Assembly: GCA_001414345.1 (NCBI GenBank)
Contig: LLCB01000015.1
Span: 305,498-369,497, forward strand
Direction of reading: 5' to 3'
DNA length: 64,000 nt
Source: Hymenoscyphus infarciens
Lineage: Eukaryota; Ascomycota; Leotiomycetes; Helotiales; Helotiaceae
The notes beneath the pieces are model-generated. The model was not told the origin of the DNA. It made no database searches and saw nothing but the letters and a program-made list of their open reading frames with translations. Every line of letters starts with the position of its first letter. Positions within the stretch are counted from its first letter, which is position 1. Below are positions 5,306 through 59,342 of this stretch, piece after piece. A program made the translations under genes and the position numbers.

Positions 5306-5534
5306 AGAGGATACAGAGGGGCTCGTTGGCAGGTACCTAGGTACTGAGTATCACGTACCTAGGTAGTACCTTCCATTACCAACCCTTGCTGTCGACCCAA
5401 GACACGCCTTCCGCATCTCTCCATACCACCCAGACGAGAGCGGGGGGAGACAGCCCGCCTTGGTGGCCCACCTTGGGTTCCAGCTACCAAGAAGAAAAGA
5501 GAAAAGCAGTCGAGTGCTGAACATGAGATAAACC

Positions 5535-35344: not shown

Positions 35345-35700
35345 TGTGACGGCATACCGTCCTATATAGCCGAGATTACATAGCATATACCGTGTTTCAG
35401 TAGTTGTTATTTTATATTATCTAATTTAGGAAGGTTACGTACGTCCGTACGTCTATCCAGACTTTCGGACGTACTTCGTAGAGTTCGAGCTTTTGTATTA
35501 GCCGACGTATATCGTTGTTCGGTTTCGTACCTCTTTTATATCGTCTAAACCTCTTATATATAGTAGCTTACTCTCCTAGAGTTAGAAAAGGCTAGTTTAG
35601 CCTTTTCTTCTATATTAGAGCCTAGTATTTATATACGTCATTCTACTAAACGCACTCCTATATACCTCTTCTATAGTTATATATATTTCGTACTATTATA
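35345..35700 (+). repeat. 5' LTR of copy 2
   Basis: 356 bp, TGTGACGG to TATTATA. It is the least mutated LTR of the group and retains several CG and TG dinucleotides. The leader runs from 35701 to the copia insertion at 35909/35910 and resumes after 43691. Confidence 0.88.
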
Positions 35701-35909
35701 TAAAAAGACTAAACTCTTCTTCGCTAGTAATAGTATAAATAATATCTCTTTCAAGCTTTTTATTACTTCTTTTGTTTTAAATTCGAAGTTAATATACCTT
35801 TCGCTTTAGGCTAGAATTAGACTAGAAGAACAATATTCTTAAATAGCTAGGTAATCAGAGACTACCTAGACGGCTAGTAATACTAGAGTTTAGTATCTAT
35901 ATAGATAGC

Positions 35910-36084
35910 TGTTATAGGACAAAGGTGGGTTAGACAAAGGATTACCTGATAATCTCTACCTTTTAAGCGAGGAGCATAGTATTTAAAGCCTTATACTCTC
36001 CTCTATAGTTCTAGGAATTAAGTATCTACTTTAACTTTACTTTACTTATCCTATACTCTTAATATAGCTTCTATAATTACTATA
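35910..36084 (+). repeat. Copia 5' LTR
   Basis: 175 bp beginning TGTTATAGG and ending ATTACTATA. It differs from the 3' LTR almost exclusively by transitions, as expected of RIP rather than age alone. A candidate primer-binding stretch (GTTATAAGCCTAG) starts at 36085 and loosely resembles the Met-tRNA-type site of many copia elements. Confidence 0.9.
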
Positions 36085-39000
36085 GTTATAAGCCTAGTTA
36101 GTAGATAGAATACTGCTTCTACTACGCTAGTTATATTAGCTTTATCTTCTTTTTATCTATTCTTATCTTCTTCTTAAGAGTACTACTTTTATAATAGTAA
36201 GCTTACTCTTAACTAAAAAAGTCCTCTTTACTAACTAAAACTCATAGCTTATATAGTATAACTACTTCTTTTATATTACTTACTAAGAAAGAGTCTAGGA
36301 ATACTTCGATTTAAATAGCTCTAATACTAAGAATACTAATAAGCTTAAAAGACCTTACTCTATAATTAAATAAGCTATACTTAATAAGAATATTAGACTT
36401 AAAAAAGCCTAGCTTATAGTAAATAAAGCTTAGGATATACTCTTAGTAGCTTAATATATTAGAAGAGATCTACTAGAACTACCTCTCCTAGTATTAGCTA
36501 ACAACGTTAAAGAGGACTTTAGAGACGATATTAAAAGATATACTTTTAAAATTAATAAGCTTTATACTATATAAGGTAAGATATATAAAGTTAGCTCCTA
36601 GGTAGAGAGTACTATAGATAAGTCTATACTCTTAGAAGCCTAATCCTTACTTAGATACGCTAGGAAATTCGCTCTTTAAGACCTAATTTAAAAGCTTAAA
36701 AATAACTTAGTACTAATATTAGAAAGCGTAGAAGATATAGTATATATAGAATACTAGAATATACTTACTTAAACTAAATTAGGGTCTATAAACTCTAATT
36801 ACTAGTTCTCTAACTAGAAACGCTACTATAACTAAGTAAAAAATTTTTAACTCTTAGAGATTAAGAGTCTACTTATAGTAAAGGACTTCCTAGATATAGT
36901 TTACTAAATTACTCTTATCTAAGTAATAAGTTAAAAGATATAGTTAATTAATAATATAAAGCTTAAGAAAGGAGTTATATTACTTAATAATCTTACTAAA
37001 ATGTTTTTAGAGATCTTATATAAATACCTTATATTAAAGACTAGTAAGAAGGCTAGTAAGATATTCTCTATTCTTAGAAGTAGAAGTAATAACCTATCTA
37101 ATTCTAGGAATAGAGCCTAAAATAGGGGTTCTAATAATAAGAAATGTCTATATAAGACTAGTTAAGGATACTTTTAGAAACTAGTTAACTATTAAACCTT
37201 AGAATTTATACTTACTAGAAAGTATAATCTTACTCTTAATAATCTCTTAAATAATAAGGAGTTAAAAGAGATTATATAGTACTTAAGAGCCTCTTTCTAG
37301 ATAGACCTTTAAAAGAAACTAATTAAAAAGTTCCTTATAGTATAATCTAAGTTTAGAAAGGGATCTATAAGCTCTACTTAGAGGTTATTAAAATACCTTA
37401 TTAGGAATATAAGTATTATAATCTTATTTTTAGAGCTTTTAACTAATCTAGAAAGAATAAACTAAGCTCTAAAATAGAGAATCTATACTTTCTTAGCTAA
37501 ATATACTAGATACTTTCTTATAGATTTAATACTCTTTAATAACTATAGAGTAGTTTATCTTATTAATAATAAGGATATACTTATTCTAAGAACCTTTAAG
37601 CGCTCTAATAATATAGTAGAATTAGGAACGACTAGTATTCTAATTAGTAGAATAGAAATAAGGGTTATAAAGAACGTTCTTAAAAGTAAGAGAGGAAGTA
37701 ACTCTATAGATCTAACACTTACTAATATTATAGTTATTAAGAGTTTTTATTCTAATATTATCTTAGAAGTATATATTAGAGAATCTAGAGTATAGTATAA
37801 TAGGTATAACTATTTACTACGCTTTAGACTTATAAAGAATAGTATAGTTATTAAATCTTTAATTTATATAGTAAACTTAGTCTTATTTAAATATAACTCT
37901 ATTAATAACTATACTAAGCTCTAAAACCCTTAAGCTATATTTATTTTAATATATCTAATACTCTTTAAAAAGATTAATAAACGCTTTTATAAGAAGATAA
38001 AAGACTATACTAGACTAAGAAGCGATTTAGTAGAAATTTAGTATAGAAGATTAGAATATCTAGAATAGGAAGCTCTTAAAGCTCTAGTCTAGTTAATAAA
38101 GAACGTAAAAATTATAAGTATTAAATAAGCGAAGTACTTATACTATACTATTACTTATACTTAGAATATAGTTTTAAGATATATCTCTAAGAATAAGAGT
38201 ATATAACTATTCTAGTAGTACTTGTAGGATTTGTTTAACTTTCTAACTAGATATAATAGAGCTAAATAGCTCCTCTTAATAAAAGAGGAGTATAGTAAGA
38301 AGCTCTTTAGATTTATAATAATAAATAAGAGAGAAGAAATAGTATTTAAAAAGCTTAGAAACTTTAAAAGATAGATTAGATAGTAATATAGTCTTTTAAT
38401 TTATAAGCTTAAGTATAATAATAATAAATTAGTAATCTTATAATATAGAGCCTTAGAATATACTTTATAGGCTATAGAAATTAGAATAGACTTAGAGTTT
38501 ATATTAACTTATACTTATAAGCTAAATAGAGAGGTAGAGAGAGTAAGATAAGAAGTAATTATATACTTAATTAAAATGTTATTTACTACTAACTTATTAT
38601 AACACCTCTAGACTAAGTCGACTATAGCTAGAATCTAGCTTTATAATATAAGTCTTAACTAAAGAAACAAGTTTAAGATATTAAATAAGGTGCTCTTATT
38701 ATAGTTTAATAATTATTTCTACTAGTATAATTTAAAGTTTAAGAACTTAGTAATAAAAGACCTTAGACTAGATTAGAATAGAATCTATATTTATAGGTTT
38801 AGAGCTTATCTACTAAAAAAGGAAAGAGAATAAGAAGTTAAGAAGAGAGCTTTTAAAGTTAATCTTAGAGCTTATATAGGTTATTTAGTTAGGTATATCT
38901 TATTAAATATCTACTATATCTAGGTTTTATAGCTTAATCGAGTTATTATAACTTAGAATATTATATTTAATAAAGAAATCTTTTATATACTAGAATATAA

Positions 39001-41756
39001 AAAGGTAGAATAATAACCTATTATAATTACTTATATAGTAGTATAGTATATAGTTAAGTAAGAGTAATAGGATACTAAAGCCCTACTTAAAAGTGTTAGT
39101 ATATATAAAATAGAGAGTGTAGGAAAACTAAAACTAGGAGCTAAACTAGTAAGAGATATCTTACTTAAAGCTACTAATATATTAAGTAAAGCTTTAATTA
39201 GCTAGAACTTAGGAGTAAGGCTAGAAAAGGGAGATATAATCTCTTCTAGGTTTAGACTTCTATTACTTAGAGTAATACCTAAACCTAAAAGTATATTAGG
39301 ATAGGTTATAAGCTTTTAAAATAAGTAAAATATAGGAATCTCTTAATAAACTATAAAACTCTCTTAATAAGTGCTTATAGAATTCTCTTAACTATAAAAT
39401 AATACTAAAAGTATAAAAGGCTTAAGTAGTCTACTAATTAAGATAAGTAATAGAATACTAGAGGGAATCTTCTAATAAAATAGAGAGAGTAGGCTCTTTT
39501 AATAATAAAGTAGTATATAAGAAAGAACTCTTAATATACTAGTTCTAGAAACTTCTAATACAAAGTTAACTAAAGAGTAGAGAATAATAAATATAGAAAG
39601 TAAAAACCTAAAGAAGTCTAAGATAAAGTAAGAGTATATAAAGAAAGTATATCTATCTATATTAAGAAAGAGTAGAAGAGGTTAACTTAAAGAGAAGGAT
39701 ACTAGAGATATAATAATCTCTACTCTACTAGCTATATTAATTAGAATAGAGCTTTAATAGGCTATTCTAGAATATTTAAATTATTTCTTTAGTACTTTTT
39801 AGCCTTTATTAGAGAGTATAGTATTAAATAGAAAGGACTTATAAGATATCTACTATATTATTATAATAGTAATAATAGAGGAAGAAACGCCTCTAAAGCC
39901 TAAATACCTATGCCTTTATTAGTTAAAACTACTAAAAGAGCTAAAATTATAGAGAGAACTTATAAACTATCTACTTAGTAAGTACTTTAAAGACGATTTA
40001 GAGCTTAAAATTAAAAACCTAGAGAAAAGGAAATACTAGTATATAATTAAAAGATAGAATACTAAAACGAAACTATTACCTTTAAAGTAAGTATTTATAT
40101 ATAAATATAACTCTATAAACTATCTAATTTAATACTAAGCTTAGCTTATAGTAAGGGGTAATCTCTAATAAGAAGATACTATCCTTTTAATATATACTAC
40201 TATACTTATAGTAAGATTATTCTAAATAGCTATAGTAATAGCTACTAGATTTAACCTAGAGATTAAGTAATATAATATTATAAATACGTTTATTAACGTA
40301 GAAAGGGATATAGAAGCTCTTTTAGTAGCTTACTAACTTCTAGATAGATATTAATAAAAAGGACTATATATTAAATTAGATAAAGCACTTTATAGGTTAA
40401 GAGATTTCCTAGCTCTATAGTTTAAACACTTTATAACTACTCTTTAAGAATATAGCTTAATACCCTATCTAGAAGAGCCTTATATTTATATAGATCTCTT
40501 AAAAAAGGTTTTTATAATCTTTTATATAGATAATATATAAATAATATACTATTAAGACAACAAATCTCTAGTAAGAGTTATAATAAATAAACTAAAGCTT
40601 TTATATAAACTATACTTACTTAGTAATATAGAATAGTATTTTAAGGTAAAAGTCTATAAAGATAGAGTATAGAAAAAGATATAGCTCTCTTATAATATAT
40701 ATATTAAACAAGTTACTAAATAATTTAAGCTTATTAATAGAGATTACCTAAGTATACTACTTCTAATATATAAACTAAAAAAGAATTAAGGAATAGTAAA
40801 ACCTATGTTTATAAAGTTTTATTAGGAGAAGATAGGTTTAGTACTCTATATAGTAATTATAATATAACTAGATGTTATATTTACTACTTTCTAGCTTTTA
40901 TATTTCTTAACTAACTTAAATAATAAATATATAGCTATAATAGATTAGTATATTTAATACTTATTTAGGATAAGGTTCTTAGAAATCATATATAGAAAAG
41001 AGCTTAGAAGTATATAACTAGTACTTATCTTAGATATATTATATACTAATAATCTAGAAACTCGAAGATCTTCTAATAGATATATAATATCGTTATTTAG
41101 TAGACTTATAGCTTAAAGAGCCTTATAATAAGATATAATTATAATATTAATAATAGAAGCCAAGCTCTTAGAAGTAAAGTAACTAGGTATAGAAACAATA
41201 GTATTAAAGCGTCTTTTTAGAGAACTATAGCTTAATTTAGGTAAGATATAGAATATATTTTATAATAATTAATAAACTATTTAATTAATTACTAGAGAAA
41301 ATAAGAGAATATCTATAAAGCTTTAATATATAGATATCTAGAATATATAGCTTTATTAGAAGTATTAGAAGAGATCTTTCTAGGTTACTTATTTACTAAT
41401 AAATAATATACTAGTAAATAGACTTATAAAAAACTTATTTAAGTAAAAATTTAAATATTTTAAAGCTTTACTTAATCTCTAGAACGCTTATTTACTTAGT
41501 AAAACACTCTCTTAAAAAGCAAAGTATACTAAATTTTAGGTTAAAACTATATTTTTAAGTTAAAAACACTCTTTTAAAATAGTAAATAACACTCTCTATT
41601 ATTTTTATATATTATTATACTTTACTTTATTATTTTACTTATATATTTTTAAGAAGTTTTATTCTTTTTTATTTTATAATTATTTAGAGAGTATTATAAG
41701 CTTATTTTAGATTTTATTTATTTATTTAATTATTATATACTTAGTAATTAAGTATT

Positions 41757-43506
41757 ATAAGACCCTTTTAAGAAGTACTATTAAATATAAATATAAAGTT
41801 TTAAAGGAACTAACTACTACTACGTAAACGTAAAGTATACTAACTAACTAATAGTACTTCTTCTAACGCTTAGAAACAGTTTTACTAAGTATAATAAGTA
41901 CTATACTTATTTTATTAAAAGTATTACTAAGATTAATACTATTAGACTTATTATTACTATTATTATTCTTAGATTCCTTACTCTTAGAAATATCCTTCTT
42001 ATACTTATAGCTCTTTAAAGAACGCTTAAAATAGTTATTAGTAAGCTTTTTAGAAGATAACTTCTTAGAAACTAACTTTATAGAAGTAGTTTTCTTTAAA
42101 ATAATCTTTCTTAGAATAGACTTTAGAATAGATTTTTTAGGATAGCTCTTTAGAAGAACCTTTAAAGGCTTTTAAGTAGACTTTTACTACTTAGAAGAGA
42201 AGGTATTATCTTTACTATAAATAGTAGAACTCTTATAAGGAGTGCTTAGGCTCTTAGTTTAACTACGAGTATTAGCTCTTATAAGTAGAGTACTATTTAA
42301 GGTAAAAGCTATAAAAGGAGTACTCTTAGAAACATAGTTACTATACTTTAAAACCTTAGGAGTATTACTATCTAGTTTATTATTAGAAGCGAGACTCTAA
42401 AAACTGTTAGGCTTCTTATAGTAATAAGTATAGTTTAGAACCGAGGATAACTAAGAGCTTCTAAAACCCTATTTAAGACTTATATAGATTATACTATATA
42501 ACTTCTTCTACTTCTAAATCTATAAAATTAGCTAAGGAAATAAAATAAGAAGTAGAGAACTAACTAAATAAAGCTCTATATAAACTTTATTACTAATATT
42601 AGTTTAATATTTCTTAAGATTTTTAGTTAAGGTAATTATAAAAGGGAGATAGATACTTAATAACGTTTTATAAGAGTATCTAATAGTATAGTTAAAATAG
42701 TATATAACTTTTTTAGATTCTATATTATAGTAGCGACTAGTTAATTTACTAGCTACTATAGAAGTAACGTAGCTCTTATAAAGAGCTTCTTAAAAATTCG
42801 AAATATTATAATAAGCTTTCTTAATAGAAGGCGTAATAAGTAAGCTTTTATTACTAACGGTTAGGTGCTCGACGTTATTACTAGGAAGTTTGTTTAAGAG
42901 CCTAGTATTAATAGCTAGAAGCTTCTTAAGAAGTTTTTTAGGTTTAAGACTGTCTTTAAAAGCTTAATATTAATTAGAGCTTATAACTACTAACTTCTCT
43001 AGCTTATTCTTAGAGATGTTAATAGTATAAAATCTACTAAGTATACTACCTTAAGGTATAACTAGACTAGAAGAGGAAATATATAAGAGATTTAATATTT
43101 AATATTCTTATATAGTTAGCTAAAGTATAGAATAAAGATTAATATATTTAAAAGAATAATACCTAGGTTTTAATCTATTAATTATATATTTAATACCTTC
43201 CTTATTCTCTTTATCTTTATAAACTTTAACTTTATAATACTTATAAACGAGTATAGAGCTATTATTTATAGGTGTCTTACTATCTAGAAGATAAGAGATC
43301 TAGGAGAGAGGCTATTTTAGTTAATATAAGAGCCTAGGAAAGGTAAATATAAGCTTTATACTATAGTTTTTTGTTAGGTAGCGTATGTTATAGTAGTCTA
43401 GTAGTGGTAAGAGAGTTTTAAGGAAGTTATAAAAAGAAAAGAAAGAGTTTAGGTTATTAAATCTGTATATATAGTAAACGACGCTTTCCTAATTAGAAAA
43501 GGTTAT
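41757..43506 (-). pseudogene. Long antisense open frame inside the copia element, function unknown
   Basis: On the minus strand one frame runs unshifted for about 580 codons between the end of RNase H and the 3' LTR. Every interruption I found is TAG or TAA, i.e. a former CAG or CAA glutamine codon, and none is TGA. The probable start is an ATA at 43506-43504, which a single G-to-A change would turn from ATG. The N-terminal half is hydrophobic/aromatic with Leu/Ile/Tyr, the C-terminal third (about 42.3-41.9 kb) is Ser/Lys-rich (for example KKLSSKKLTNNYFKRSLKSY). I recognise no domain. Some plant LTR elements (Grande, Retand) carry antisense genes in this position; I know of no fungal copia example. 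Confidence 0.65.
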
Positions 43507-43516
43507 TTAAGAGGTA

Positions 43517-43691
43517 TATTATAGAATAAAGGTAGGTTAGATAAAGAATCACCTAATAATCCCTACCTTTTAAGTAAGGAGTATAGTATTTAAAGCCTTA
43601 TGCTCTCCTTTATAGTTCTAGGAATTAAGTATCTACTTTAACTTTACTTTGCTCATCCTATACTCTTAATATAGCTTCTATAATCGCTATA
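43517..43691 (+). repeat. Copia 3' LTR
   Basis: 175 bp beginning TATTATAGA (TG mutated to TA) and ending CGCTATA, followed directly by the ATAGC duplication at 43692-43696. Confidence 0.9.
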
Positions 43692-43696
43692 ATAGC

Positions 43697-46600
43697 TAGT
43701 AAAAATCGTATTATAGACACGTTAAGGGATTAGAATACGCTAAGTATTCCCGAGAGTCCTAATAACCCTAGGTTTAGTAAATAAGTTAACTTATTATAGT
43801 TATCGCAAAGGCTTCTAACCTAACCTTACCCCCCCCCTCTCTAAATCGATATTATGTTAAACCAGTTCCGCTACGAGGCGTTAAGCGACAAACCCCTTCT
43901 AGGGACACCCCCCTTTTCAAAAGACCCTCTGAACCCTCTCCGAATCGAAACCGTACACCGAAAAACACAAAAGGTTCTAAAGAGACTTTTTAAATATAGA
44001 CAATATATAGATAAGATAGCGGTATAAATAAAGGATAAAACAATCGGTTAGAGAAATAGAAGATATAATTATAAGCGAACTTCGAAGTTAAAAATATACC
44101 ACCTCTAAATACTTACCGATCCAACTCTTATTCAAACCTTCGTTCGAACCCTCCTTTGCTTTTTAAAGCCCTAATTCAGACCTCTTTCGCTTAAGAGACA
44201 CCGCTACCCCTAATGCCTTCCTACCACTTCCCAACCCTCGAATCGGATACGAATCGGTCGAAATACACTTTCTATCAGGACCAAAGAAGTAAGCTCTTAG
44301 CTAAGTTATCGCTATTAATCCCGACCGAACATCATCTGATCTAACTCTAAACTTTTCCTTCGAAAATACCTCTACTAGCGAACATTCAAAAAGACTACGG
44401 TTATAGACCAAGTCCCCGCCAGTACAAAGAGTAAAAGAGATAGAGGTTAAAAGAGATAGAAGTGGAATTAGGAGAAGAATACGCTAAAGAAACGTTCGCT
44501 TTTCGAGTACAGCTATACTCGAAGGGAATTAGAACGATTCTTCTATATATAGAATAAGATTACACCTTAGCTCTAGAACGCGTCTACTATACTTAAGTGA
44601 CACTGGAATTTTAACCCTAGATAAGGAGAGACACTAAAGCACTAAATATTCGAAAACAACGAAATTATTTAATCTTAGCATTTCGGTTTAGAATACCCCT
44701 CTATCTAGCTCCGAGCTCTCTATAATACAATAGTAACTCTTCTTTAAAATCAGAAGATAAATAAGTTCTTAAGTACTCTAAAGAGAACAAGACGGCCTAT
44801 AGGCCTAAATAATACAGTTTTATATAACTAGATATCTAAACTTAGATACTACTGTCTCTAAAACTACCTCTCCTCTTATTATCCTAGACTTCGGACAACA
44901 ATTTCAAACTTTAATAATATTCAGTAATAACTTTTTTATTTTAACTAGCTGAAAACCCCCCTTTTATTATCCCTAGTTACTTAAACAAGAATTTTAAATA
45001 TAATAACTTCGGTAATAAGTCTTTTAATAAGCCGAAACCCTACCTATTATTATCCTAAACGTCGGATAACAATTTCAACTTCGACAACTCGGTAACAACT
45101 TCGCCTTTAACTAGCCAAAACTACTCCTTTTATTATCCTAAACTTTAGACAGCATTTTTTAACTTTAGTATTAAGTTTATTTAACTAGCCGAAACCACCT
45201 CTTATTATTATCTCGAACTTTAGATAGTATAACAACTTTGATAACAAAATCCTTTAACTAGCTAAAACCCTACCTGTTATTATCCTAAACGTCGAATAAT
45301 AATTTTAACTTTGACAACTTCGGTATTAAGTTTATTTAACTAGCTGAAACTACCTCTTTTATTATCCTTAGATACTTAGATAATAAATTTTTAACTTTAA
45401 TAATATTTAATAATAACTTCGCCTTTAACTAGCTAAAACTCCTCCTTTTATTATTCTAAACTTTAAATAGCATTTTTAACTTTAACAACTTCGGAAATAA
45501 CTTTGCTTTTAATTATCTAAAACTACCTCTTTTATTAGCTTAAACTTTAGATAACAATTTTAGCTTTGACAACTCAGCTATAACTTCGCCTTTAAACAGC
45601 TGAAACCCTACTAACTCTGGTATAGAGTCTTATAGTCTTTACTTTCTTTACTTTCTTTTTACTTCTAGCTAGGCTAGAAGTTCCTTTTTTTATTTAAATT
45701 CTTTAAAGCAGATATAAATTAGTTAAAATATACTTTCTATTAAGATAAAATAAAGAAGTAAGCTCTTAACTAAGTTATTACTATTAATCTTAACTAAGTA
45801 CTATCTAACTTTATTTTAAACTTCTGCTAACCTAAGTTTAGATAAATCGGATATGAATCGGTATACCCTTGAAGAGAAAGTAAGCTCTTAACTAAGTTAT
45901 TACTACCTCTTAACTAAAACGACTTCTAACTCTACTCTAAATTCGCCTCCGACTATTCTAAACTTTTTCTTTTCTACTTTCTTTCACTTCTAGCTAGGCT
46001 AAAAGTTCTTTTTTTATTTAAATTCTTTAAATCGGATATAAATTAGTATACTCTTAAAACAGATCAGACTATACCCTTCTTTTGTTATTCTAAATATTAG
46101 ATAGCATTTTCAACTTTAGTAATAACTCTTTTAACTAGCTAAAACTACCTCTTTTATTGTCTTTAGATACTTAGATAATAATTTCAACTAAGATAACTTT
46201 AGTAACAACTTCCTCTTTAACTAGCTAAAACTACCTCTTTTATTATTCTAAACTTTAGATAGTATTTTTAAATTCAGTATTAAGTCTTTTAACTAGCTAA
46301 AACTATACTAACTCTAATAAGAGTCTTATATTCTTTACTTTCTTTTACTTCTAGCTAAGCTAGAAGTCCTTTTTTTATTTAAACTTTTTAAATCAGATAT
46401 AAATAGATAAACTTATACTCTTTTTTCTCGAATTTAGATCAGATCTGAATTAGTACACTCTCGAAGTAAACTCTTAACTAAGTTATTACTACCTCTTAAC
46501 TAAACGACTTCTAACTCTACTCTAAATTCGCCTTCGACTCTACTTTAAACTTTTTCTAATTTTACTTTAAACTTTTAAACTTTTAAACTTTAAAAATTTT

Positions 46601-46857
46601 CTAACCTACTAGACAGGATCGGACTATACTCTTTTAGTAGACACGAATACTTACTTTTAATATTAAAGGATTAGAAACGAAGTCTCTTTACAAGCATCTA
46701 TAGTTATAATTTAAGACTCGATATCTCGTCTCGCTTACGATTTTAATAAAATAAGTCGATTTAGAACCGTCTCACTTACGACAAATTACGATAAATAAAG
46801 TATCTATAAACTTAGGTTAGCTATGATTTAGACTCTAACTAACTTATAATAATATAA
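43697..46857 (+). mobile_element. Continuation of copy 2 internal region: leader and gag remnant
   Basis: Resumes the leader interrupted at 35909. AGTAAAAATCGTATTATAGAC aligns with the leader of copy 1 after its single ATAGC. It then passes a C-rich island at about 43826-43836, a start-like region near 43855 and a gag remnant similar to copy 1. From about 44.9 kb it becomes the tandem array described separately. No polymerase motifs were seen. Confidence 0.7.
44860..45620. repeat. Tandem array of ~75-90 bp units inside copy 2
   Basis: About nine degenerate units. Each has a core like ACTAGCTGAAAC followed by CTACCTCTTTTATTATCC, AACTTTAGATA and TTCGGTAATAACTTC. Unit length varies between roughly 72 and 92 bp. 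Two or three further units lie at about 46070-46310, and copy 1 has a single unit at about 34240-34340, so the array expanded in copy 2 or its lineage. Confidence 0.8.
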
Positions 46858-46866
46858 TAAATGTTA

Positions 46867-47018
46867 CGGTAATTATCTATTTTGCTCTCTAAATGATAAT
46901 TTATATCTTAAATATCCCTTGATTAATGAATAATACCTAGAATACCCCTTGTTTTTATACCTCTTATTTTTAGAGAGTAAAACTGTTAAAACAGAGGTAT
47001 TCTAGTTAGTAAAGATAT
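46867..47018. repeat. Left terminal inverted repeat of the Mutator-like element
   Basis: Begins CGGTAATTATCTATTTTGC. It is the inverse of 49970-50121 with differences that are nearly all transitions. Confidence 0.88.
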
Positions 47019-49969
47019 TTTCCTTATTTATTGTTTTCTCTATACTAATATACTAAAAATTTAATAAATATAGTAAATTAACCTACTACTATACTATCTA
47101 CTTACTTCCTAATATATAAACTTTTATAAGTACCCTCTAGTATAATACTCTAATCCTTACGCTTTCGTTTATCTCTTAAATCGACGGCTTTTTAGCCCTT
47201 CTAAGTACTTAGATTAACCTTAATTCTAATTCCTTCTTACGTAGTAGGATTAATTCTTAGCTTAGTACTATCTATACTAATTTCACTCTAAACGTCTATA
47301 TTCTCTTACTCCTACTCCTACTCTTACTCCTACTCTACTACTTTTACTCTATATAATTAATCTAATATTAATAGTATAAGGTAACGTCTATTAATATCTA
47401 CTATACGCTCTTAATCTATATAGTAATAATACCTATCTATTATACTCTAACTATTACTTGATCGTTGCTTTTCCTTCTTATCTTAAGTACTTAAAACTTT
47501 AAGGTATACTTCTAGCTTAATAAATTACTTATTAATTCCTCTTCTACTAGTAATATTATATCGACGTTATACGCTCTCTATAGCTTACTCGGTTTCGCTA
47601 TTATTACTTGTACTTATAATTAAGGGTTCGTTAAGCTTGAATAGCTCTTCTAGTAGTAGCTTAGATAATAGGAAAAAGTCCTCTAAGCTATTAGAAAAGC
47701 TATTAAATTCCTCTTTATATTCCTTTCTACTATCTCTATCCTTATCCTTATTCTTAAGAGATTCTAAAACTCGGTTTCGACAATAGAAGGTAATTTATAC
47801 TTTATTAGTAGTAGTAAGATTAGATTAGTAGAGAGGATCGTTGTTAATATCTTTAAAGAAGACTTCCTAGTCTTTAAACTTGTTATTACTTAATTAGTTA
47901 CTATCTTCTTTAAAAACTACCTCTTTTGCCTTTTATATACGCTTATAGACTAATAGTATACCTATATATATTCTTGAATTATAGCTAACTTCTTAGTAAT
48001 TATAATACTTATAATTTAATAGTTAATACTCTTAGTAGATATATGCCTTTTTTAGTTATCTTATATAACGCTTGATTAGTAGTAGTAAAATACTAGGAGT
48101 AGAATAAAGCTTATTAATTATAAGGAAAGGCTTAAAAGTAGAATAGTATATTATATAATAATTTAAGAGTAAATAGCTATAGTAGAAGAATTATACAACG
48201 TTGATAGTAAGATATTAGTAATAGGTAATTATATATAAGTAAGGTAATTAATAATCCTAGAAAGAGAGATATAAGTAAGTATACTCTTTAAAGTCGACTT
48301 AGTAGCGATGTTTTTTAAGAGTATTAACTTAGTAGACGTCTCTACTAGTAGGAATAACTTTATACTTTTTAATATACTCTAGCCTTTTAAGATAGAGCTT
48401 CTATAGCTTATTTAAGACCTTAGTATTACTAAATTTAGTAGACGAATTATAGTATAAATAAAACTTCTTTATTATCTAATCTTATATACTATTAAGTAGT
48501 TATATTAGTAGACGATTCTAAATCTCGCTCTATACTAAGTTAATACTCTTAATAATATTTAATATATTATAGCTATATTGTAAAAGTCCTTTAATAGAGA
48601 TAACCTTATATACGGAATAAATATCGGTTAGAATAGTAGTGACGTATTTAAAGAGGGTTTTATTACTATACTTCTTTTTAAACTTTACTATTTATAATAG
48701 AGTTTTCTAATAAGTATTCTTATCTTTTATATAGTAAAGTCTCTACTAAAGTTATCTTAATTCCTTACTATAGCGAAAGGCGATGTTATTTATAATATAC
48801 TAATAATATATAAGAGCGTGAGCCTTTAGAAAGGCTATTAGAAGTTGCTTTTATAGGCCCTTTTAGTAGTTGCTAATTAGTACTTATTTATTACTATTCT
48901 TATATATTACTTAAAGAGTTTAAAAGGTATATACTATATTTATAAAGTACTACTTCTACGACTTCTCGTCCTCCTTTAGTAATAACGCCTAGTAAATCGG
49001 TAATATCTTGTTATTAGTATTAATTATAATAGTAATCGCTAGTACTATCTTAAACTTCGATTAAGTATATATAGTATCGACTCTAGTAAAGTAGCGGATA
49101 TATTTAGCGGTATTATAAAGAGGTCCTAGAGTAATAAATACGCTCTTAAATTCTATAGTTTCCTAGTTAATTTAAAGACGCGCGTAGTAAGTAAGATCTA
49201 AATCTTAGAGCATCTTTATATAATTTAGTATAAGTGTAAACGAATTCTTTTCCTTTTTAAGACTCTTCTTATATTGCTTTTAGATAGCGCAATATACTTA
49301 ACGATTTAGTATAGTATTATCTTAGCTAAGTAACTTCTTATTATTTACTAAATTCTTTACCTTAAGGTTAGGATCTTAATTAATAGATTTAGCGTAGATA
49401 TTAAAGATATATTATATACTATTCTTATCGCGGTAATTAAGGTGTATATTAGTTAGATAAGAGTAAGAGGTATATACTTAAAGGATTACGTATTAAGTCT
49501 TCTTAGAAAGGATAATACGTAGGTAGAATTTATATATCTCTTTTATCTTATACTTAAGGATAAACTAACCTTTATCTAACTTTATAATCTTATAAGACTT
49601 GTCTTAATTAATTAGATAAACGATTATAGCCTCTTTTACCTCCTTAAGAGTAGGCCACTCTTGACTAATTCGTATGACGTCCTTTAAAGCGTTAGTGTCT
49701 ATTAGCGTAGAATTACTTATTAATTTATTTATAATAGCTTTATCTTATTATTCTTGTTAATCGAGCTCTTTTAATATTATACGACGAGGCTTTATATACC
49801 GCTTACGCTCTACCTTATCCTTATACTTAAGAGCTAGTATATTAGTAGTAGTAGTAATAGTAGAAGAAGATAGAGAGGGAATAGATTTTAGTACTTAAAT
49901 ATTATAAGGCATCCTAGTATATAGTTTTAATTTACTTAAAAATAGGTGTAGATATATAGTAAAAGTAGT

Positions 49970-50121
49970 AAATATTTACTAACTAGAATACCTCTGTTTT
50001 GATAGTTTTGCTCTCTAAAAATAAGAGATATAAAAACAAGGGATATTCTAGGTATTATTTATTAATTAAGAGATATTTAAGGTATAAATCATCATTTAGA
50101 GAGCAAAATAGATAATTACTA
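49970..50121. repeat. Right terminal inverted repeat of the Mutator-like element
   Basis: Ends GCAAAATAGATAATTACTA. Its reverse complement matches the left end, and the TAAATGTTA duplication follows immediately. Confidence 0.88.
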
Positions 50122-50210
50122 TAAATGTTATAACACTTATACTATCCCGATTCGACTCTAAACGATAAGAGATAGAAGACTCGAGACAAGTCTTTTTCAA
50201 GAGAGAGGGA

Positions 50211-50541
50211 TATAACAGTATACCGTCCTATATAGCCGAGATTATATAGTATATGCCGTGTTTCAGTAGTTAAGGTTACGTATGTCTATACGTCTATCCG
50301 GACTTTTAGACATACTTCGTAGGGTTTAGGCTTTTATATTAGCCGACGTATATCGTTATTCGGTTTCGTACTCTATTTATATCGTCCGAATCTCTTATAT
50401 ATAGCAGCCTACTCTCCTAGAGTCAGAAAAGGCTAGTTTAGCCTTTTCTTCTATATTAGAGCCTAGTATTTATATACGTCATTCTGCTAAACGCACTTCT
50501 ATATACCTCTTCTATAGTTGTATATATTTCGTACTATTATA
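50211..50541 (+). repeat. 3' LTR of copy 2
   Basis: 331 bp; about 25 bp shorter than the 5' LTR because of one internal deletion near 50266. It is preceded by a purine tract and followed by the GCTTT duplication. Confidence 0.88.
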
Positions 50542-50546
50542 GCTTT

Positions 50547-51251
50547 CTTAGACGCGTCTTCTATAAGTTACGCTACTATAGATATATATTCTAAGGAATC
50601 TAATAATTTAATAGCTAGAGCTGTCTTTTATATTTATAGATTATCTATCTTAGTTGAAGGTTATAAAAGATAGAAGCTTAAAGCTTATATAATTTCTAAT
50701 TTATAAATATAATACTTAAGAGAGATGAATTAATATCTATAAGAGTCTTTAGAGGTTTAAATTATTATTAATTCTTCTAAATAATCTTAAATAATCCTAA
50801 ATAGCCTTTAAAATAATTCCTTCTAAATAATATAATCTAAATAGAGCTTAAGACTTTTAATTCCTAGATATTTTATTATAAGTTACTAACTCTTTAGAGA
50901 GACGTTAGCTAGTCTCTCTAAAATAATACTTAACGTTTTAAAGTAAAGTTTAAAAGAGACTTAGAGTTACTTTTAATTCTAATATATTAATATAATATTA
51001 ATAAAGAAAAGTTAAAAAAGTAAATTAAAAGTCTTCTAGTAACTTATATATTATTAACTATCTAAACTATATATAACGTTTTCTATATAAAGAGAGTTAT
51101 TAGAAGTCTTAGAAATACTTAGTATACTCTACTCTCTTTAATATTTTAAAAATATACTTTTACTAGCTAGCTAATAGATATTAAACTCTAATATTACTAG
51201 CTATTTATAAAGTCTTTAGTATTATAGTTAAACTTAAAATAAGTCTAGTCG
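50547..51251 (-). mobile_element. Fragment 2 of the older minus-strand LTR element (leader and start of coding region)
   Basis: Read on the minus strand from 51251 it matches the family leader (for example CTAGTAATATTAGAGTTTAATATC, near 51.19 kb). It joins fragment 1 at 59343 once the gypsy element is removed, and fragment 3 at 35344 once copy 2 is removed. No intact frame. Confidence 0.7.
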
Positions 51252-51256
51252 AAATC

Positions 51257-51752
51257 TATAATAGCACGAAATATATATAACTACAGTAGAGGTATATAGG
51301 AGTGCGTATAGTAGAATAACGTATATAGATACTAGGCTCTAATATAGAAGAAAACAATAACTGTCTCTCTACTATACTAAACATAAACGTCTATATATAA
51401 GAAGGTTAGAAGCTTCTAAGTTCTAATAATAATAATAACCAAGCTCTATCTAATATAGCTAATACTAAATAACAAGAGCTAAAAAGCTAAATATATAACC
51501 TCTAATTCTTTAAAAAGCTAAATATATAACATCTAAACCTTAATCCCTTCTATATATAAATGTTGGATATTAATACCTTTAGCACTTCGCTTATATAAGT
51601 ATCGGTTATTCGTAATCTCGGCTCTAGAGGTATTAGAGGTATTAGTACTACTTAGAAGTATTAGTAGTTTTATAAATACTAATAATTTAGAGTAGTGCTA
51701 TTATATAATAATCTAGCTATTATATAATAATCTAAGATAGTATACTATTATA
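51257..51752 (-). repeat. Gypsy 3' LTR
   Basis: 496 bp; the inner end carries TATAATAGTATACTATC on the minus strand, the mutated form of the TGTGATAG start, next to the polypurine tract. Confidence 0.93.
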
Positions 51753-54700
51753 TCCCCTCTTCTTTAAAAAGACTCGTTTCAAGTCTTCTATTAGCGATTA
51801 GCATAGTATTAGATCGATTAGAGTATTATTTGTCTTTTTATTATAAAGAATATAACTTATCTTACTATTATAGTATCTAGTAGTTAGAGTAGGGTTAGTA
51901 GCTAGTAGTATTATCGTTTAAGAGCTAATCGCTCTTTGTTTACTACTATATACTATATAATAATAGGATATAAATAGAAGAGAAGCTAATAATTAGCTAG
52001 TAGGTAGAAAGCAGTACGCTACTATAGAGTTATTATATTCTTACTATTATTATATATTATAATAGTAATTATTAAGTAATAAATAATAATTATAAAGCGA
52101 TAGCTATTATTAAAAGTAGTATATTAGTAGGCGACTTTTCCTTAATTCTAACTTCTCTTCTTCTTTTCTTTTTATCTAAATAATATAAATAGTAAGAATA
52201 CCTTCCGATTAGGTATATTCTTATATACTAACTTATCTCCTAGAATATATATATTATATATATATAAAAGTAAGTTCTTCTCTTTTTAATCGGACCTAAT
52301 TCGAGGCTAATCTAATATAGTAAAATGCCTTTTCTATGTTCTTCTAGTACACTTCTGGCTACCTACTAAGTCTACTACGTTTAGTACCTTTAAGTAAAAT
52401 CTTAGAACAGAGATTATATATACGCTTTTAAGAAGCCGAAGTCGAAGAAGTATAGGTACTATATAGAGTAGAATACTATGTATATTCTAGTAAGTTTAAT
52501 CTTAAATATATACTAAATCTATTCTAACTTAGGTAGTTACTATAGTTTATTAGAAAGGAGTTTAATAAGCTTATAAGTAAGAAGGAGAAGGAGGAGGTTA
52601 AGAAGGCTATTAAGGCCTTAGATAAAGTATTAGTCGTTACTAGTATAGAGGTACTAAAGAATAGCTTAGAGGTATAGTTTACTCTTCTAGAGAAGACTTA
52701 GGCGCTTTATACTAAGGTTGTTATAAGTACCTCTTACTTATTAAAGAGGTTTTAGTTACTAATATTTAATAGTTTTTATACTATACTATAGAGAGTAGAA
52801 CCTCTGTCTAAACCTAGGTTTAGGTCCTTTTCGAGGCCTATTTAAAAAGTTTATAAGCGTCCTTTCTAAAGCTGGTTATAAGAGGTCGCTGAGGTAAGAA
52901 GCGTTCTTATAAGGAGGAGGTAGTAGAGGAAGAGCCGATTTAGGCTCCTTATACTTAGGAGGGTAGAGAGGAGGATAATAAGTTAGAGGAAGGAGAGGCT
53001 ATGGCCTAGAGAGGGTTAGTAGGCTCTGTTTTAGTAGTAACTCGGTCTTAGTTCTTTACTTTATTAATTTCGAATATTCCTACTAGTTAGTATTTTATCT
53101 TAGGTTTTTATTATAAGTTCCTTATTAAGAGTAACTAGAATTAGAGAGTATTAATATTATAAATTAACTCTTTTACCTAATTCTTATTTAATTCTTATAT
53201 ATTAAGCTATTTAGAGAGGTGTTAGAGTAGTCTCGGCTCTTCTAGATATTTAGTATAAAAGTCTCTTAGACGATATAATAAACCCTAAAAATTGTCTATA
53301 GAATACTAAGTAGGATCTAAATCGTATCTAACCTATTTTACCTAATACTATAGCTATCTTCTAAAAAGTCTACTACTAAGTATTTCTTATACCTTCTATT
53401 CTTATATACTTTTAATAATGTCTAGTAGAGGCTTTAAAGCCTCTTATCCTAGTAGAGAGGTGTTTAGATTCTTTAAAAGTATATTAGAGGTGAAAATATT
53501 ATAAATTAATAAGCTTTTAAGAAGTTTTAGCTTATAGAAGTGTCTTATACTTTCTAATATTTTAAAAGGTTCTATCTACTATTTAGTAAGCTTTTAGCTA
53601 GGATAATTTATTTTAAGATTCTTAATAGATAAGTAGACTTTATCTTTAACATCCTAGTTAATAGCTCTTTAGTATTAGTTTATACTATCCTTTATCTTTT
53701 TCTAAGCCTTATCTATATTATCTTTAGCTATCTTCTAAGTAGAGTATATATATTAGGCTACTTTTACTACCTTATTATAGTTAAGTTATTCTTAGAGAAT
53801 AGAAGTCTTTAGTATATTCTAGTTCTATAAAGTCTTTAAGTTAAGTCTAAACTTAAGCTAATAAGAGGTTATACTAATAAATAAGTATAGAAGTGTTATT
53901 TATACTCTATCTATTAAGAGGATTAATTCGCTCTAGTTGTCTTAATAGTAGGTTATAAAGAGCCTTAGTCTCTAATTAATATATCGGTTTATTATCTCTA
54001 TCTATCTATCTATCTATTTATAGTAGATAGTACTAAGCTTAAGCTTAATACTAATTATTTAATAAAATTTAGTTTAAAATAATAATATAAATTAAGATTC
54101 TTAATTAGATGTAATTAATTTAAAGTAGTAGCTAAAATAGTAAATCTATTAAATAAAGAGTTTAACTAGTCTTTTAGTATCTATAGTCGAGTAATAGAGT
54201 ATTAATACTAAATCCTTTCTAAGTTAGTTAATAAATACTAATATAGTATTAAATCTATGTTTATCTTTTAAGAATAATTTAAAGTCTATATATAAATATT
54301 ATATAGAATAGTTAAGTATAGGTAGAGAGTAAAGAAAGTCTTATTACTTAGTTTATTAAGGATAAGAGTATTTATAAGCTTAATAATTCCTTATATATCT
54401 CTTATAGTCTAAAAACATTCTAGTCTAGTAGTAATATTATACTAATAACTAGTATATCTTTTTTATACTTAGGTAAGTACTAGATACTTAGTTATAGACT
54501 TCTTAGATTAGTTTTATATAGAGTTTAATATTCTTTTAAATATAAAGTTAATTCTTAAAAAGTAGTAAATTATCTAATAAGAGGTAGTATCTATCTAAAA
54601 GTTAATAACGTTCTTTCTAAAAGAAGTATAAGTTATCTTTCTTTAACTTCTAAATTATATTTAAACTTATTCTTAGAATATCGTCTAACTAAATTATATT

Positions 54701-57700
54701 AAGAGAGGTAGACTATTCTTATAAAAAGGTCTAAGTAAGTTTAGTGTTAATTTAGAGGTTTAAACGATTTAGTACTAAGAGAGTACGTAAGTAACTATCT
54801 ACTTTAGCTTAATTATAAGTTTTTAGGTCTTACTTATATTAAGTTAATATATCTACTTTTTAATTACTCTTCTTAGACGTAAATCGGATCTAGAAGTTAA
54901 AGTCTAATAGAAACTCTATCTATTAGACTTACTTAGCTATAAGTAGCTTAGTTATTATAAAGTATTCTAATAATCTATAATCTAAATATACGTTAATATA
55001 CTTCTAATATAATATAAGTTTAAAGCGCTATTTCTTAAAAGCTTCTATAATAGTAGATAGCTCTTTATTATAGATCTCCTAGTTCGATTTATAGCTAACT
55101 AGGACGTGTAAGTAGAACCTAATAAAGTACTAAAGGCTATTATATTATTATAAGAATACACCTACTATTATTCCTTCTAAGGAGTCTATTTCTACCTTTA
55201 TATTATAATTAAGGTTAAAGTAATATAAGGTTTATATAGTAAGTAGCTAGGTTCTTAGTACTTTAAAGGCCTTATTATATTTAGGTATTTATAGAAATAG
55301 CTCTATAAGACGTATTATCGTAGTTAGAGGTTTAGTAATTTTAGTATAACCTTTAATAAATTATCTATAGAATTCTATAAACCCTAGATAAGACTTTATA
55401 CCTATTATAGTATTAGGTTAAACCTAGTTTTATAAAGGCTCTACTTTTTCTAGATTAACTTCGAGTCCTTTTATAGTTAAGATAAATCCTAAGTATTTAA
55501 CTTTAGTAATACTAAATTCGCTTTTCTTAATATCTATCTAAAGTCCTACTTCTTAGAGCCGATTTAGAACTTTCCTAACCTATTCCTTATATTCTTTAAT
55601 AGTGTTTAAATAAATTAAAATATTATCTAAGTAAGTAATATAGAAGTTATTTAGATAATTAATTAAGACATTGTTTATATAACGTTAATAGATAGTAGGG
55701 CTATTATAGAGTCTAAAAAGGAGGACCTTATATTTATATATACTATACCTGGTTTTAAACGTAGTTATCTCTTCTAAGTCGAGGTCTATTTAGATATAAT
55801 AGAAAGCTTATCTAATATCTAATTTAGTAAAGATTTTAGTTATCCTTATTCTAGAAAGGAGCTCGTTAATATAAGGGATTAAGTAAGAATCGTTTTAGGT
55901 TAGAGCGTTTAGCTTTCTATAATTAATATAGAACTATAACTTATTACTATTAGTCTTTTTAATAAAGAGTATAGAAGAGGTAAAAAGGCTATTACTATTA
56001 ATAATAAACCCCTTATCTAGGTTCTTTATAAGATACTCTTTTATAGTCTTAAGCTCTATAGTTAACTATTAATATAGAGGCGAAAAGAAGTTAAGAAGTA
56101 GCTTATTTAAAGTAATCTTATAATCGTATTCGTAGTAAGGAGGAAGCTTATTAGAAGCTACTTTTAAGAATACGTCTTTATAGAATAAGTAATACTTTAG
56201 AAGTTAGGCCTATATTAGAGCCCTTATCTTATCGTCGTCTTAGAAAGGGGCTAATCTCTTATTAATAACCTAATCTAGCTTATAGAGGCTTATTATATAA
56301 AATTCTAAATTAAGCTATTTTATATTATAATATATTATATTAGCACTTATTTTATAGATAAAGAAGTATAGGGTCTAGCCTTTTAAGGCTATACTAGTAG
56401 TTTATAAAGGCTTTAAACTAAAGTCGGATATTAAAATTTTAGGAGATATTATTATAGATAGAAGTAATAACTTAGCTATATATATAAGTCTACTCTTTTT
56501 ATATCTTTCTTATTACTAGATAGTATATTCTCTTTAGTTTATATCTAACTAGTGATTTAAAAAAGGTTTCTAGTTCTAGCTAAAAAGAGAAAGTAAAATT
56601 TCCTTACTATAGTAGAGAGTTAGAGAGTATTTAGCTAGCTAAGTAATCTAGTTCTTTAAAGAGTTAAAAAGAACTTTAAAATAGTTTAACTACTTATTAC
56701 TAATAATTAGGTCTTATTATCTAAGGTCTAGGATAATAAAGAGGTAGTTATAAATATAACGTTTATCTACGTTTAGATATAGTTATATAAACTAATTTAC
56801 TTAGCTTTTAGTACTATTATTATATCTATAAATAGATACTAAATAAGGTAGTTTCTAGATCTTTAAATCTATTACTTTTAATAATTATAAGACTAGGAGT
56901 CGATTTAGAAATAGGTACTTATTTACTCTTATATCTACTAAAGCTTATATTTTAATACTATATCTTTATATACTAAGAGTAGTATTTATAAGGAATTATT
57001 TTCCTCTTATAAGCTTAGAAAGGTCGAGTCTAAATAGATTATATTTATATAGGCTTAAGAAGGTATTTTTACCTAAGCCTCTTCGTTTTCCTTCTAACTT
57101 AGGTTAGAGTTAGAGTACTCTTTAGGTAGTTATTCTTCTTTAGGTTAATCGTTCTTCTCTATCTTATTAATACTAGGTAGATTAAGATAGTTAGGCTTAA
57201 TATGCCTAGGTTTCTTATAATTATAGTACTTTATACTAGTAAGGAGTTAGTCTATAGACGAAGTCTTTAATCTTTCGCTAGTAGAAGAGGGTTTAAGAGA
57301 TTAAGAAGTTTTTTAAGAAGTAGTATAAAGTCTATATAAGAGTAGTAAGGGTTTTATTAAGGAACTAGATAAGGTTCGGTTAGTATTAGGCTTTTAGTAT
57401 AATAAGCTTATTATAACAGGTTTTTTAGTACTTATTATATTAGTTATATATAACTTAGTATTATAGCGCTATTCCTTATCTATAAATAATAGGTCTCTTA
57501 CTATTTTATTAAAGTTAGTATTCTAGTATCTCTTACTATTAACTAATTAGGTTTAGAGCTAAGGCGTAAGTTTATCTTATATATAGTAGAACTTATCTTA
57601 CTTAGATACTTCTCTAAGTATTACTATACTTAAAAAGTAACTTTTAAATTCTATAAAACTTTCTTCTATATAACCCTTCTATCTTATCTAAAGAGACTAA

Positions 57701-58841
57701 AAAGTGTTCTAGGTATTCTTCTTCTTATAACCTATTAGATAGTAGGTATTAAGAAGCTCGATTATCTCTTTATAGTCTTTAAATACTATCTTACTTATAT
57801 TAGACTTATATTAGAGCTCTAAGTAGTTCTAGGTAAGTTTCGTTATCGTTCTCTAAATAAGAGCTTTATAAGTTAAAGGCGTTTAATAATAGTTAGTATT
57901 TATATAGAGTCGATTACGTATTAATATTCTCTATTACTTATATATAGGTAAAATGCTATTATTTAAAAGTTTAATTTTTTCTATAATCTTACTTTTAATA
58001 GGTTAAAAGGCTTTTAGAGTGCTTTTAGGTTATAAGCGTAGAGTAGGTTATAGTAAGAGATAAATATTAGAGGTAGAGTCTTATCTATAATAGTAGTTTA
58101 AAGAGGTAGAAGGAGGTGTTTATATAAGTTAGATAAGACTTAGACTTTAGTTATTATTTAGTAGTTATTAACTAATTTACTATACTAGGTCTAATAATTA
58201 GGCGATTTAATTATCTTACTCTAAAATTCTCTATTCTTTTTCTTAATTCTTAGCCTTTATAGCTTAGATTATACTCTATATCTCGTCTATATTAGAGAAG
58301 TCCTATTAATCTCTCTAGCTTCTAGGCGCTAGGCCTTTATCTTTATTGTTTTTAGGCTTCTTACTATTCTTAGGGGTATAGTACTAAGTTAGAGACCTTT
58401 TAGTAGAGGCTTGACTTTATTCTTTAAAGGGTTGCTCTACACTTAAGAGCGAAGCTTAGGAGAGACTAGGGGTCGCTCTAGATTCTAATATATTAAATGT
58501 TAAATTAGAGAGAGAGGTAGGATTAGATTTAGAAGCCTTCTAGATAACTATTATAAGTCGGCTTATTTACTAAATCTAGGGTTATTAGGACTCTTGAGAA
58601 ATACTTAGTGTATTCTAATCTTTTAATATATACTAAAATATGATTTATACTAGCTATCTATATAGATAATAAACTCTGCTATTACTAGCCGTCTAGGTAG
58701 TCTCTAATTACCTAGCTATATAAGGATATTATTATAATATTCTAAATCGAGTATAAATCGACTTTTAAACAAGGAGTAGCGATAAGCTTAAAAAGAGATA
58801 TTATTAAGGCCGTTACTAGCGAAGAGGAGTTATTATTTTTA

Positions 58842-59337
58842 TATAATAGTACGAAATATATATAACTATAGTAGAGGTATATAGAAGTATATATAGTAGA
58901 ATAACGTATATAAATACTAGGCTCTAATATAGAAGAAAATAATAACTATCTCTCTATTATACTAAATATAAACGTCTATATATAAGAAGGTTAGAAGCTT
59001 CTAAGTTCTGATAATAATAATAACCGAGCCCTGCTTAATATAGCTAATACTAAATAATAAGAGCTAAAAAGCTAAATATATAACCTTTGATCCTTTGAAA
59101 AGCTAAATATATAATATCTAAACCTTAATCCCTTCTATATATAAATGTTAGATATTAATACCTTTAGTACTTCGCTTATATAAGTATCGGTTATTTGTAA
59201 TCTCGGCCTTAGGAGTATTAGAGGTATTAGCACTACTTAGAGGTATCGGTAGTTTTACAAATGCCGACAATTCAGAGTAGTGCTGTTATATAATAATCTA
59301 GCTGTCATATAATAATCTAGGATAGTATACTATCACA
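58842..59337 (-). repeat. Gypsy 5' LTR
   Basis: 496 bp, same length as its partner, less mutated (starts TGTGATAGTATACTATCC on the minus strand). The leader continues to about 58.5 kb and is homologous to the leaders of copies 1 and 2. Confidence 0.93.
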
Positions 59338-59342
59338 AAATC

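What the first reader, a model, noticed from the sequence alone, without database searches (positions are those of the whole stretch)
41757..43506. A ~580-codon antisense gene carried by a fungal copia element
Between RNase H and the 3' LTR, the minus strand keeps one frame for about 1.75 kb. I checked it line by line (60-nt lines, so phase is easy to follow): no frameshift appears and every stop is TAG or TAA, as RIP makes from CAG/CAA, with no TGA seen. The encoded protein, hydrophobic N-terminally and Lys/Ser-rich C-terminally, has no domain I recognise. Antisense genes at this site are known in a few plant LTR elements; in a fungal copia element this would be new to my knowledge. It could be a captured host gene or a regulator of the element.
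Basis: partly seen in the sequence, partly recalled or inferred. Interest (0 to 1): 0.8.

Follow-up and report, generated by a model that had tools for sequence, protein, structure and literature searches.

The report
Antisense gene in fungal copia retrotransposon
A decayed jumping gene in a fungus carries, on its opposite strand next to one end, the remains of what is most likely an extra, fast-changing protein gene without known relatives; such backward genes are known in plant elements and in one grey-mould element, so this is a new variant rather than a new kind.

Summary
A 7.8-kb Ty1/copia element (35910-43691; 5-bp target duplication) carries a 583-codon minus-strand frame (41755-43506) between RNase H and the 3' LTR. 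It has 25 stops against 49-116 in the other five frames. It recurs in 75 listed matches in this genome, each with stops. Insertions/deletions shared by copies mostly keep the frame (11 of 13 are multiples of three). Codon 1 follows an in-frame stop in 30 of 30 copies and, in the window, lies 10 bp from the LTR.

TGA is missing from all six frames of the window copy, so its absence reflects RIP. Low stop density does not fix the strand, because RIPed pol also has a low-stop antisense 'shadow'; other evidence favours minus, not decisively. Purifying selection is weak (transversion-based omega 0.37 and 0.64; P 0.046 and 0.091), and the region changes 5-8 times faster than pol. No homologue or domain was found.

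Antisense genes at this site are known in plant elements and in fungal Boty (gypsy; gene brtn; same order, Helotiales). My searches showed none in a fungal copia element. Best reading: an accessory protein gene expressed through the 3' LTR.

The parts
35905..35909 (.). left copy of 5-bp target-site duplication
   Evidence: same five bases at 43692-43696
35910..36084 (+). 5' LTR (175 nt)
   Evidence: 173 nt repeated at 43519 with 90% identity
36085..36101 (+). primer-binding-site-like stretch; resembles the complement of the initiator tRNA-Met anticodon arm (half-tRNA primer)
   Evidence: read output; the resemblance is recalled, not searched
36200..41515 (+). gag-pol region in the phase of 36482, riddled with RIP stops; RT and RNase H about 40080-41480
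   Evidence: RVT_2 recognised in copies L061 and L062 of the RT stretch. Ends approximate; gag and integrase recognised by eye only
41516..41754 (.). AT-rich spacer between the ends of pol and the antisense gene
   Evidence: pol-phase stops
41755..43506 (-). antisense gene: 583 codons plus stop; 25 internal stops in this copy
42046..42163 (-). repeats of period 15 and 27 inside the Lys/Ser-rich tail
   Evidence: TRF
43507..43516 (+). polypurine-tract-like stretch between codon 1 of the antisense gene and the 3' LTR
   Evidence: identification as PPT is inference
43517..43691 (+). 3' LTR; any promoter of the antisense gene must lie here or outside
43692..43696 (.). right copy of target-site duplication

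Best explanation
An additional protein gene, antisense to gag-pol, carried by a Ty1/copia element of a Helotiales-like fungus. Shown: position, lowest-stop frame on the minus strand, presence in most listed copies, shared length changes that mostly keep the frame, faster change than pol. Inferred: it was transcribed from an antisense promoter in the 3' LTR, because codon 1 lies 10 bp inside that LTR, and translated into a protein of about 583 residues with a basic Lys/Ser-rich, probably disordered tail. Such a tail would suit a nuclear or nucleic-acid-binding accessory protein that regulates the element's own expression or copy number, as proposed for antisense genes of plant elements. Every match listed now carries stops, most of them RIP-like.
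For: 25 stops v 49-116 in the other frames; shuffle minimum 41 in 1000. 40 DNA and 75 protein matches in the own genome; 47 of the first 50 protein matches have a convergent pol match within 1 kb, and 41 of the first 43 pol matches have the antisense region within 1 kb, the other two lying at contig starts. Indels seen in two or more copies: 11 of 13 are multiples of three (P 0.0002 against one third). The codon before the frame is a stop in 30 of 30; codon 1 is a standard start codon in 4 of 30 and its RIP-type derivative in 26; closing stop in 28 of 29. Stops fixed in all 42 copies compared: 7 of 580 codons here, 17-62 in the other five frames. Diagnostic transversions: lowest omega of the six frames in both group comparisons, 0.37 (6 synonymous, 14 not) and 0.64 (14, 56). 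Frame classifier (11 of 13 leave-one-out controls right) puts this frame first in L044 (3.3; next 1.3, best sense 0.0) and L045 (2.2; next 1.3, best sense -2.3). Tail (residues 401-540): 24% Lys+Arg, 27% Ser+Thr, 6% Asp+Glu in L044.
Against: Stop density does not fix the strand: in RIPed pol the antisense shadow frame has 6.9% stops and the true frame 7.9%; in ten in-silico-RIPed window ORFs pooled, 6.0% and 5.1%. Sense frames here (8.4%, 10.0%) are not far from pol's 7.9%. In the window copy the classifier put another minus frame level (-0.5 v -0.8; with the window ORFs alone as training this frame leads, 0.4 v -1.2) and preferred a sense frame in 3 of 5 segments. The omega probabilities are weak (0.046, 0.091). 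Transversions within the main family gave no clear preference: 0.61 v 0.66 for all 53, and a sense frame was lower (0.50 v 0.74) for the 17 seen in two or more copies. The minus strand has more C than G, unlike pol's coding strand. No homologue, no consistent domain, no usable fold. No transcript data.
Confidence: 0.66

Rival explanations
1. The region encoded a sense-strand protein after pol (an env-like gene or a C-terminal extension in the pol phase), and the low-stop minus frame is its RIP shadow.
For: Shadow frames as low as the true frame exist in pol and in in-silico-RIPed window ORFs. Frame-keeping indels do not tell strands apart. In the two C-terminal segments the classifier preferred the sense frame in phase with pol, and in the first segment another sense frame (3 of 5 segments).
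Against: It would need 8.4-16.2% stops in the true frame (pol 7.9%; window ORFs 2.1-7.8%) and 21-43 stops fixed in every copy against 7 in the minus frame, though pol's own true frame has 13 of 240 fixed. The spacer 41516-41754 is AT-rich and, by eye, not protein-like. Sense frames of L044 and L045 gave no Pfam hit, but neither did the minus frame of L044. Sense omegas 0.86 or higher in the first comparison and 0.82 or higher in the second.
Confidence: 0.13
2. A captured host gene, transduced in reverse into the element.
For: Gene capture by LTR elements is established in general (PMC7264820 passages).
Against: All 75 own-genome protein matches listed carry stops and are at least 55% identical, so they look like copies of the element (96 candidates at first look, 75 scored). 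No homologue among 7994 and 7993 scored candidates of a database that does hold Helotiales proteins (control). An ancient or fast-changing capture is not excluded.
Confidence: 0.1
3. Only the antisense RNA matters: it pairs with the genomic RNA and limits copy number through double-stranded RNA, without a protein.
For: Proposed for antisense transcripts of other elements (PMC7264820 passages).
Against: A pure RNA does not need a 583-codon open frame with frame-keeping indels. It could act in addition to a protein.
Confidence: 0.06
4. Chance open frame produced by composition after RIP.
For: RIP leaves some non-coding frames stop-poor.
Against: No shuffle of 1000 below 41 stops; shared indels mostly in multiples of three.
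Confidence: 0.03

Closest known systems
brtn in Boty-like elements (Botrytis cinerea, Sclerotinia sclerotiorum)
   Same: Fungal LTR element, extra gene antisense to gag-pol between pol and the 3' LTR (PMC7264820, PMC8365987 passages). Botrytis is in Helotiales, the order of this fungus's best named match.
   Different: Boty is grouped as BcGypsy1 and has a chromodomain (PMC4227169 passage); ours is copia. Relation of the proteins not tested: the BRTN sequence was not at hand and the 2011 paper is not held. PMC8365987 also says that further additional ORFs are drawn for other B. cinerea elements in a supplementary figure I could not see; whether a copia element is among them, and in which direction, I do not know.
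Antisense additional ORFs of plant elements (Grande gene23, RIRE2, Retand TRP28, PvRetro13)
   Same: Same place and orientation, in most copies, function unknown, nuclear or DNA-binding role suspected (PMC7264820, PMC11963269 passages).
   Different: Retand is gypsy by the passage, the others by recall; no TRP28 (PF04195) or other consistent Pfam domain here.
Env-like genes of LTR elements
   Same: Located between pol and the 3' LTR.
   Different: Those are in sense orientation (PMC7264820 passages); here the sense strand is the less likely coding strand.
Copia element on contig C438 of the same genome (L059)
   Same: Copia-type RT (RVT_2, E 4.4e-33); matched by the RT query at 25% identity with no stops.
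   Different: Its pol frame ends 62 bp from the LTR, and one search lists no other frame of 120 codons or more in the 9 kb: no such antisense gene. So the gene is not general to copia elements of this fungus.

Membership tests
Ty1/copia LTR retrotransposon | copia-type reverse transcriptase (RVT_2) | tested here: met
   L061 E 2.1e-7 (31.2 bits, cutoff 31.6), L062 E 5.2e-7 (30.0 bits); both just under the curated cutoff. The window's own RT piece gave no hit.
Ty1/copia LTR retrotransposon | LTRs and 5-bp target-site duplication | tested here: met
Ty1/copia LTR retrotransposon | integrase before RT | tested here: inconclusive
   no Pfam hit to integrase in the RIPed window piece
Antisense additional ORF between pol and 3' LTR | position between pol and 3' LTR | tested here: met
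Antisense additional ORF between pol and 3' LTR | antisense orientation | tested here: inconclusive
   minus strand favoured, not proven
Antisense additional ORF between pol and 3' LTR | present in most copies of the family | tested here: met
   41 of the first 43 pol matches have it within 1 kb, the other two at contig starts; 47 of the first 50 antisense matches have pol within 1 kb. Of 92 pol and 75 antisense matches listed, the weaker rows were not paired
Antisense additional ORF between pol and 3' LTR | conserved to a degree similar to other element proteins | tested here: not met
   diagnostic transversions 20/1734 v 1/721 and 70/1651 v 6/691 in pol
Antisense additional ORF between pol and 3' LTR | antisense transcription | not testable with these tools
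   no RNA data
Boty/brtn | Ty3/gypsy element | tested here: not met
   RT matches RVT_2, the copia-type model
Boty/brtn | protein homologous to BRTN | not tested
   BRTN sequence not available; database searches with the RIPed protein found nothing

The most novel reading that the evidence does not exclude
Copia elements of Helotiales fungi independently gained an antisense accessory gene, parallel to brtn of Boty and to the plant genes. Its fast change with frame-keeping length variation reflects conflict with host silencing, so it may be an anti-defence or nuclear regulator of the element.
Probability: 0.15. Interest if true: 0.7.

Novelty: new variant of a known kind. Interest (0 to 1): 0.42.

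Why it matters
It would extend antisense accessory genes, which I know in print from Ty3/gypsy elements (partly by recall), to a fungal Ty1/copia element. That would suggest the arrangement arose repeatedly at the same site, and it gives a fast-evolving case in which a role against host silencing could be tested. It also carries a method warning: in RIPed DNA the absence of TGA is automatic, and a stop-poor antisense frame can be a shadow of the coding frame.

Tried and rejected
Rejected: 'no TGA' as evidence. Codon-usage model for strand: 1 of 10 leave-one-out controls right, so dropped. Within-family dN/dS from transversions: few sites (53, of which 17 seen in two or more copies) and no clear preference. 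Pfam and PDB on the gene: weak hits, each in 1 of 9 members (AAA_11 0.0013, Arc_C 0.017, GHMP 0.043), none in PDB. Fold of the window copy alone: mean pLDDT 36.8, not used for any fold search. Relatives in viral and prokaryote contig collections: none. Antisense TATA-like motif in the LTR: in 5 of 33 copies only and probably made by RIP, so not claimed.

Rows chosen or dropped before counts. Searches used the 30 loci (40 matches listed). The alignment has 47 rows from 46 loci: L056 and a second piece of L052 were left out, L051 gives two rows; six of the 30 single-copy indels come from one short row (L051b) and may be alignment errors. pol set: 41 of 47 loci gave a piece (6 of the 17 loci did not: L046, L048, L051, L055, L057, L058); the third-group pol comparison rests on L047 and L050 only; L042, L050 and L056 pol pieces look misaligned. 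One search dropped L047, L048, L050, L051a, L051b (aORF) and L001 (present as W), L042, L047, L050, L056 (pol). The ten 'window ORFs' were picked by me from the 17; that each is a real gene was not tested.

Papers: PMC11963269, PMC7264820, PMC8365987, PMC4227169 seen as passages; other papers as search listings only; Zhao et al. 2011 not seen. Searches behind 'none found in a fungal copia element'; supplementary files could not be read.

Full report
WHAT IS THERE. The window lies in a 65.6-Mb, 742-contig genome. The best named match of a host UMP-CMP kinase is Hymenoscyphus albidus (92%; a nameless protein has 95%), order Helotiales. From about 34 to 60 kb the DNA is AT-rich and poor in CA and TG (0.06 and 0.07 of expectation in 36000-43500, 0.13 and 0.16 in 45000-60000, 1.0 and 1.08 in 1-33000), the mark of RIP. 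The element runs 35910-43691: LTRs of 175 nt (156 of 173 aligned bases identical; all 17 differences are transitions), a 5-bp target duplication, and gag-pol on the plus strand.

COPIA ASSIGNMENT. The window's RT stretch is too mutated for Pfam. The same stretch in two less mutated insertions gives RVT_2 at 2.1e-7 and 5.2e-7, just under the curated cutoff. Two stop-free stretches elsewhere in the genome, of one other family, match at 24-25% identity; one of them is RVT_2 at 4.4e-33.

THE ANTISENSE FRAME. Minus strand 43506->41758, 583 codons, 25 stops, none TGA; other frames 49, 55, 58, 94 and 116. No TGA occurs in any frame of the window copy, so that observation is empty. The frame begins right after an in-frame stop in 30 of 30 copies; codon 1 is a standard start codon in 4 and its RIP-type derivative in 26; a stop closes it in 28 of 29. 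In the window 10 bp separate codon 1 from the 3' LTR.

COPIES. DNA search lists 40 matches (86-100% identity), protein search 75 (55-100%); both are lower bounds and some rows are pieces of one insertion. 47 of the first 50 protein matches have a convergent pol match within 1 kb (44 of them 260-285 bp away; exceptions C192, C112, C252). 41 of the first 43 pol matches have the antisense region within 1 kb; the other two lie at contig starts. Every match listed carries stops. At 18 of the window's 25 stops some other copy has a sense codon. In L044 and L045, 20 and 19 of the 25 stop positions are still stops; in a pol stretch 17 and 20 of 23.

CODING EVIDENCE. Indels relative to the window copy found in two or more copies: 11 of 13 are multiples of three; indels found in one copy: 13 of 30. 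This fits changes made while the element was active, followed by later decay. The pol stretch showed no shared indel. The statistic does not tell strands apart.

WHICH STRAND. I first took the stop count as enough; one search showed it is not. In pol, the minus frame that shares third codon positions has 6.9% stops against 7.9% in the true frame; in ten in-silico-RIPed window ORFs pooled it is 6.0% against 5.1%. Here the minus frame has 4.3%, the sense frames 8.4, 10.0 and 16.2%. For minus: stops fixed in all 42 compared copies are 7 of 580, against 17, 62, 21, 43 and 24 in the other frames (pol's true frame, however, has 13 of 240). A classifier on stops and position-specific base use (11 of 13 controls right) gives this frame 3.3 v at most 0.0 for sense frames in L044 and 2.2 v -2.3 in L045; another minus frame has 1.3 in both. 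Against: in the window copy that other minus frame ties (-0.5 v -0.8), and of five segments one prefers this frame, one another minus frame and three a sense frame; base skew resembles pol's sense strand. I put the minus strand at about 0.85.

SELECTION. Between the main family and a second group, 20 diagnostic transversions: 6 synonymous, 14 not, omega 0.37, P 0.046. Against a third, older group: 14 and 56, omega 0.64, P 0.091. In both it is the lowest of the six frames. Within the main family transversions gave no clear preference. In pol the same comparisons give 1 of 721 and 6 of 691 sites, so the antisense region changes about 8 and 5 times faster (Fisher P 0.013 and 5e-6). The third-group pol set is two loci, one of them poorly aligned. 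The gene was kept, but under weak constraint.

THE PROTEIN. The Lys/Ser-rich tail is not a RIP artefact: residues 401-540 have 24% Lys+Arg both in the window copy and in L044. N-terminal hydrophobicity is partly RIP-made (17 v 8 windows above threshold in the window copy and L044), but a peak near residues 306-332 is in both. No homologue, no consistent Pfam family, no PDB relative, no usable model. The Pfam negative has some weight because RT is still recognised in the same two insertions. The homologue searches have less, since they depend on exact five-residue words and gene catalogues tend to leave out RIPed elements (the latter is general knowledge).

HOW IT PROBABLY WORKS. Shown: place, openness, retention, rate. 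Inferred: antisense transcription from or through the 3' LTR, translation, and a nuclear accessory role, by analogy with plant antisense genes for which nuclear localisation is reported or DNA binding predicted (PMC7264820, PMC11963269 passages).

WHAT IS KNOWN. Antisense genes at this site are described for plant Grande, RIRE2, Retand and PvRetro13, and for Boty of Botrytis and Sclerotinia (brtn). Botrytis is in Helotiales too, but Boty is grouped with gypsy. My ten searches showed no antisense gene in a fungal copia element. The library lacks most subscription papers, and a supplementary figure of PMC8365987, which draws further additional ORFs of Botrytis elements, could not be seen. A second copia family of this genome has no such gene. 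Hence: new variant of a known kind.

Noticed in passing
window 51257-51556 and 58842-59141: Another LTR-like repeat pair (300 nt, 92% identity, spacing 7585) suggests a second RIPed LTR element; a stop profile showed stop-poor stretches only up to about 1 kb in it.
   Followed up: partly
window 35431-35700 and 50272-50541: 270-nt repeat pair 14841 bp apart (90%) flanks the copia element: it probably inserted into or beside the LTR of an older element.
   Followed up: no
window 45251-45611: Degenerate tandem array with unit of about 84 and 171 bp.
   Followed up: no
L059 (C438) 2777-8812: A different copia family with identical 219-nt repeats as LTRs and few stops in a genome that RIPs heavily; it lacks the antisense gene.
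   Followed up: partly
window 36085-36101: Primer site resembles a half-tRNA (initiator Met anticodon arm) site as recalled for copia and Ty5.
   Followed up: no
window 36900-39900, minus strand: The antisense frame opposite RIPed pol is itself stop-poor over kilobases, a trap for reading antisense genes in RIPed DNA.
   Followed up: yes
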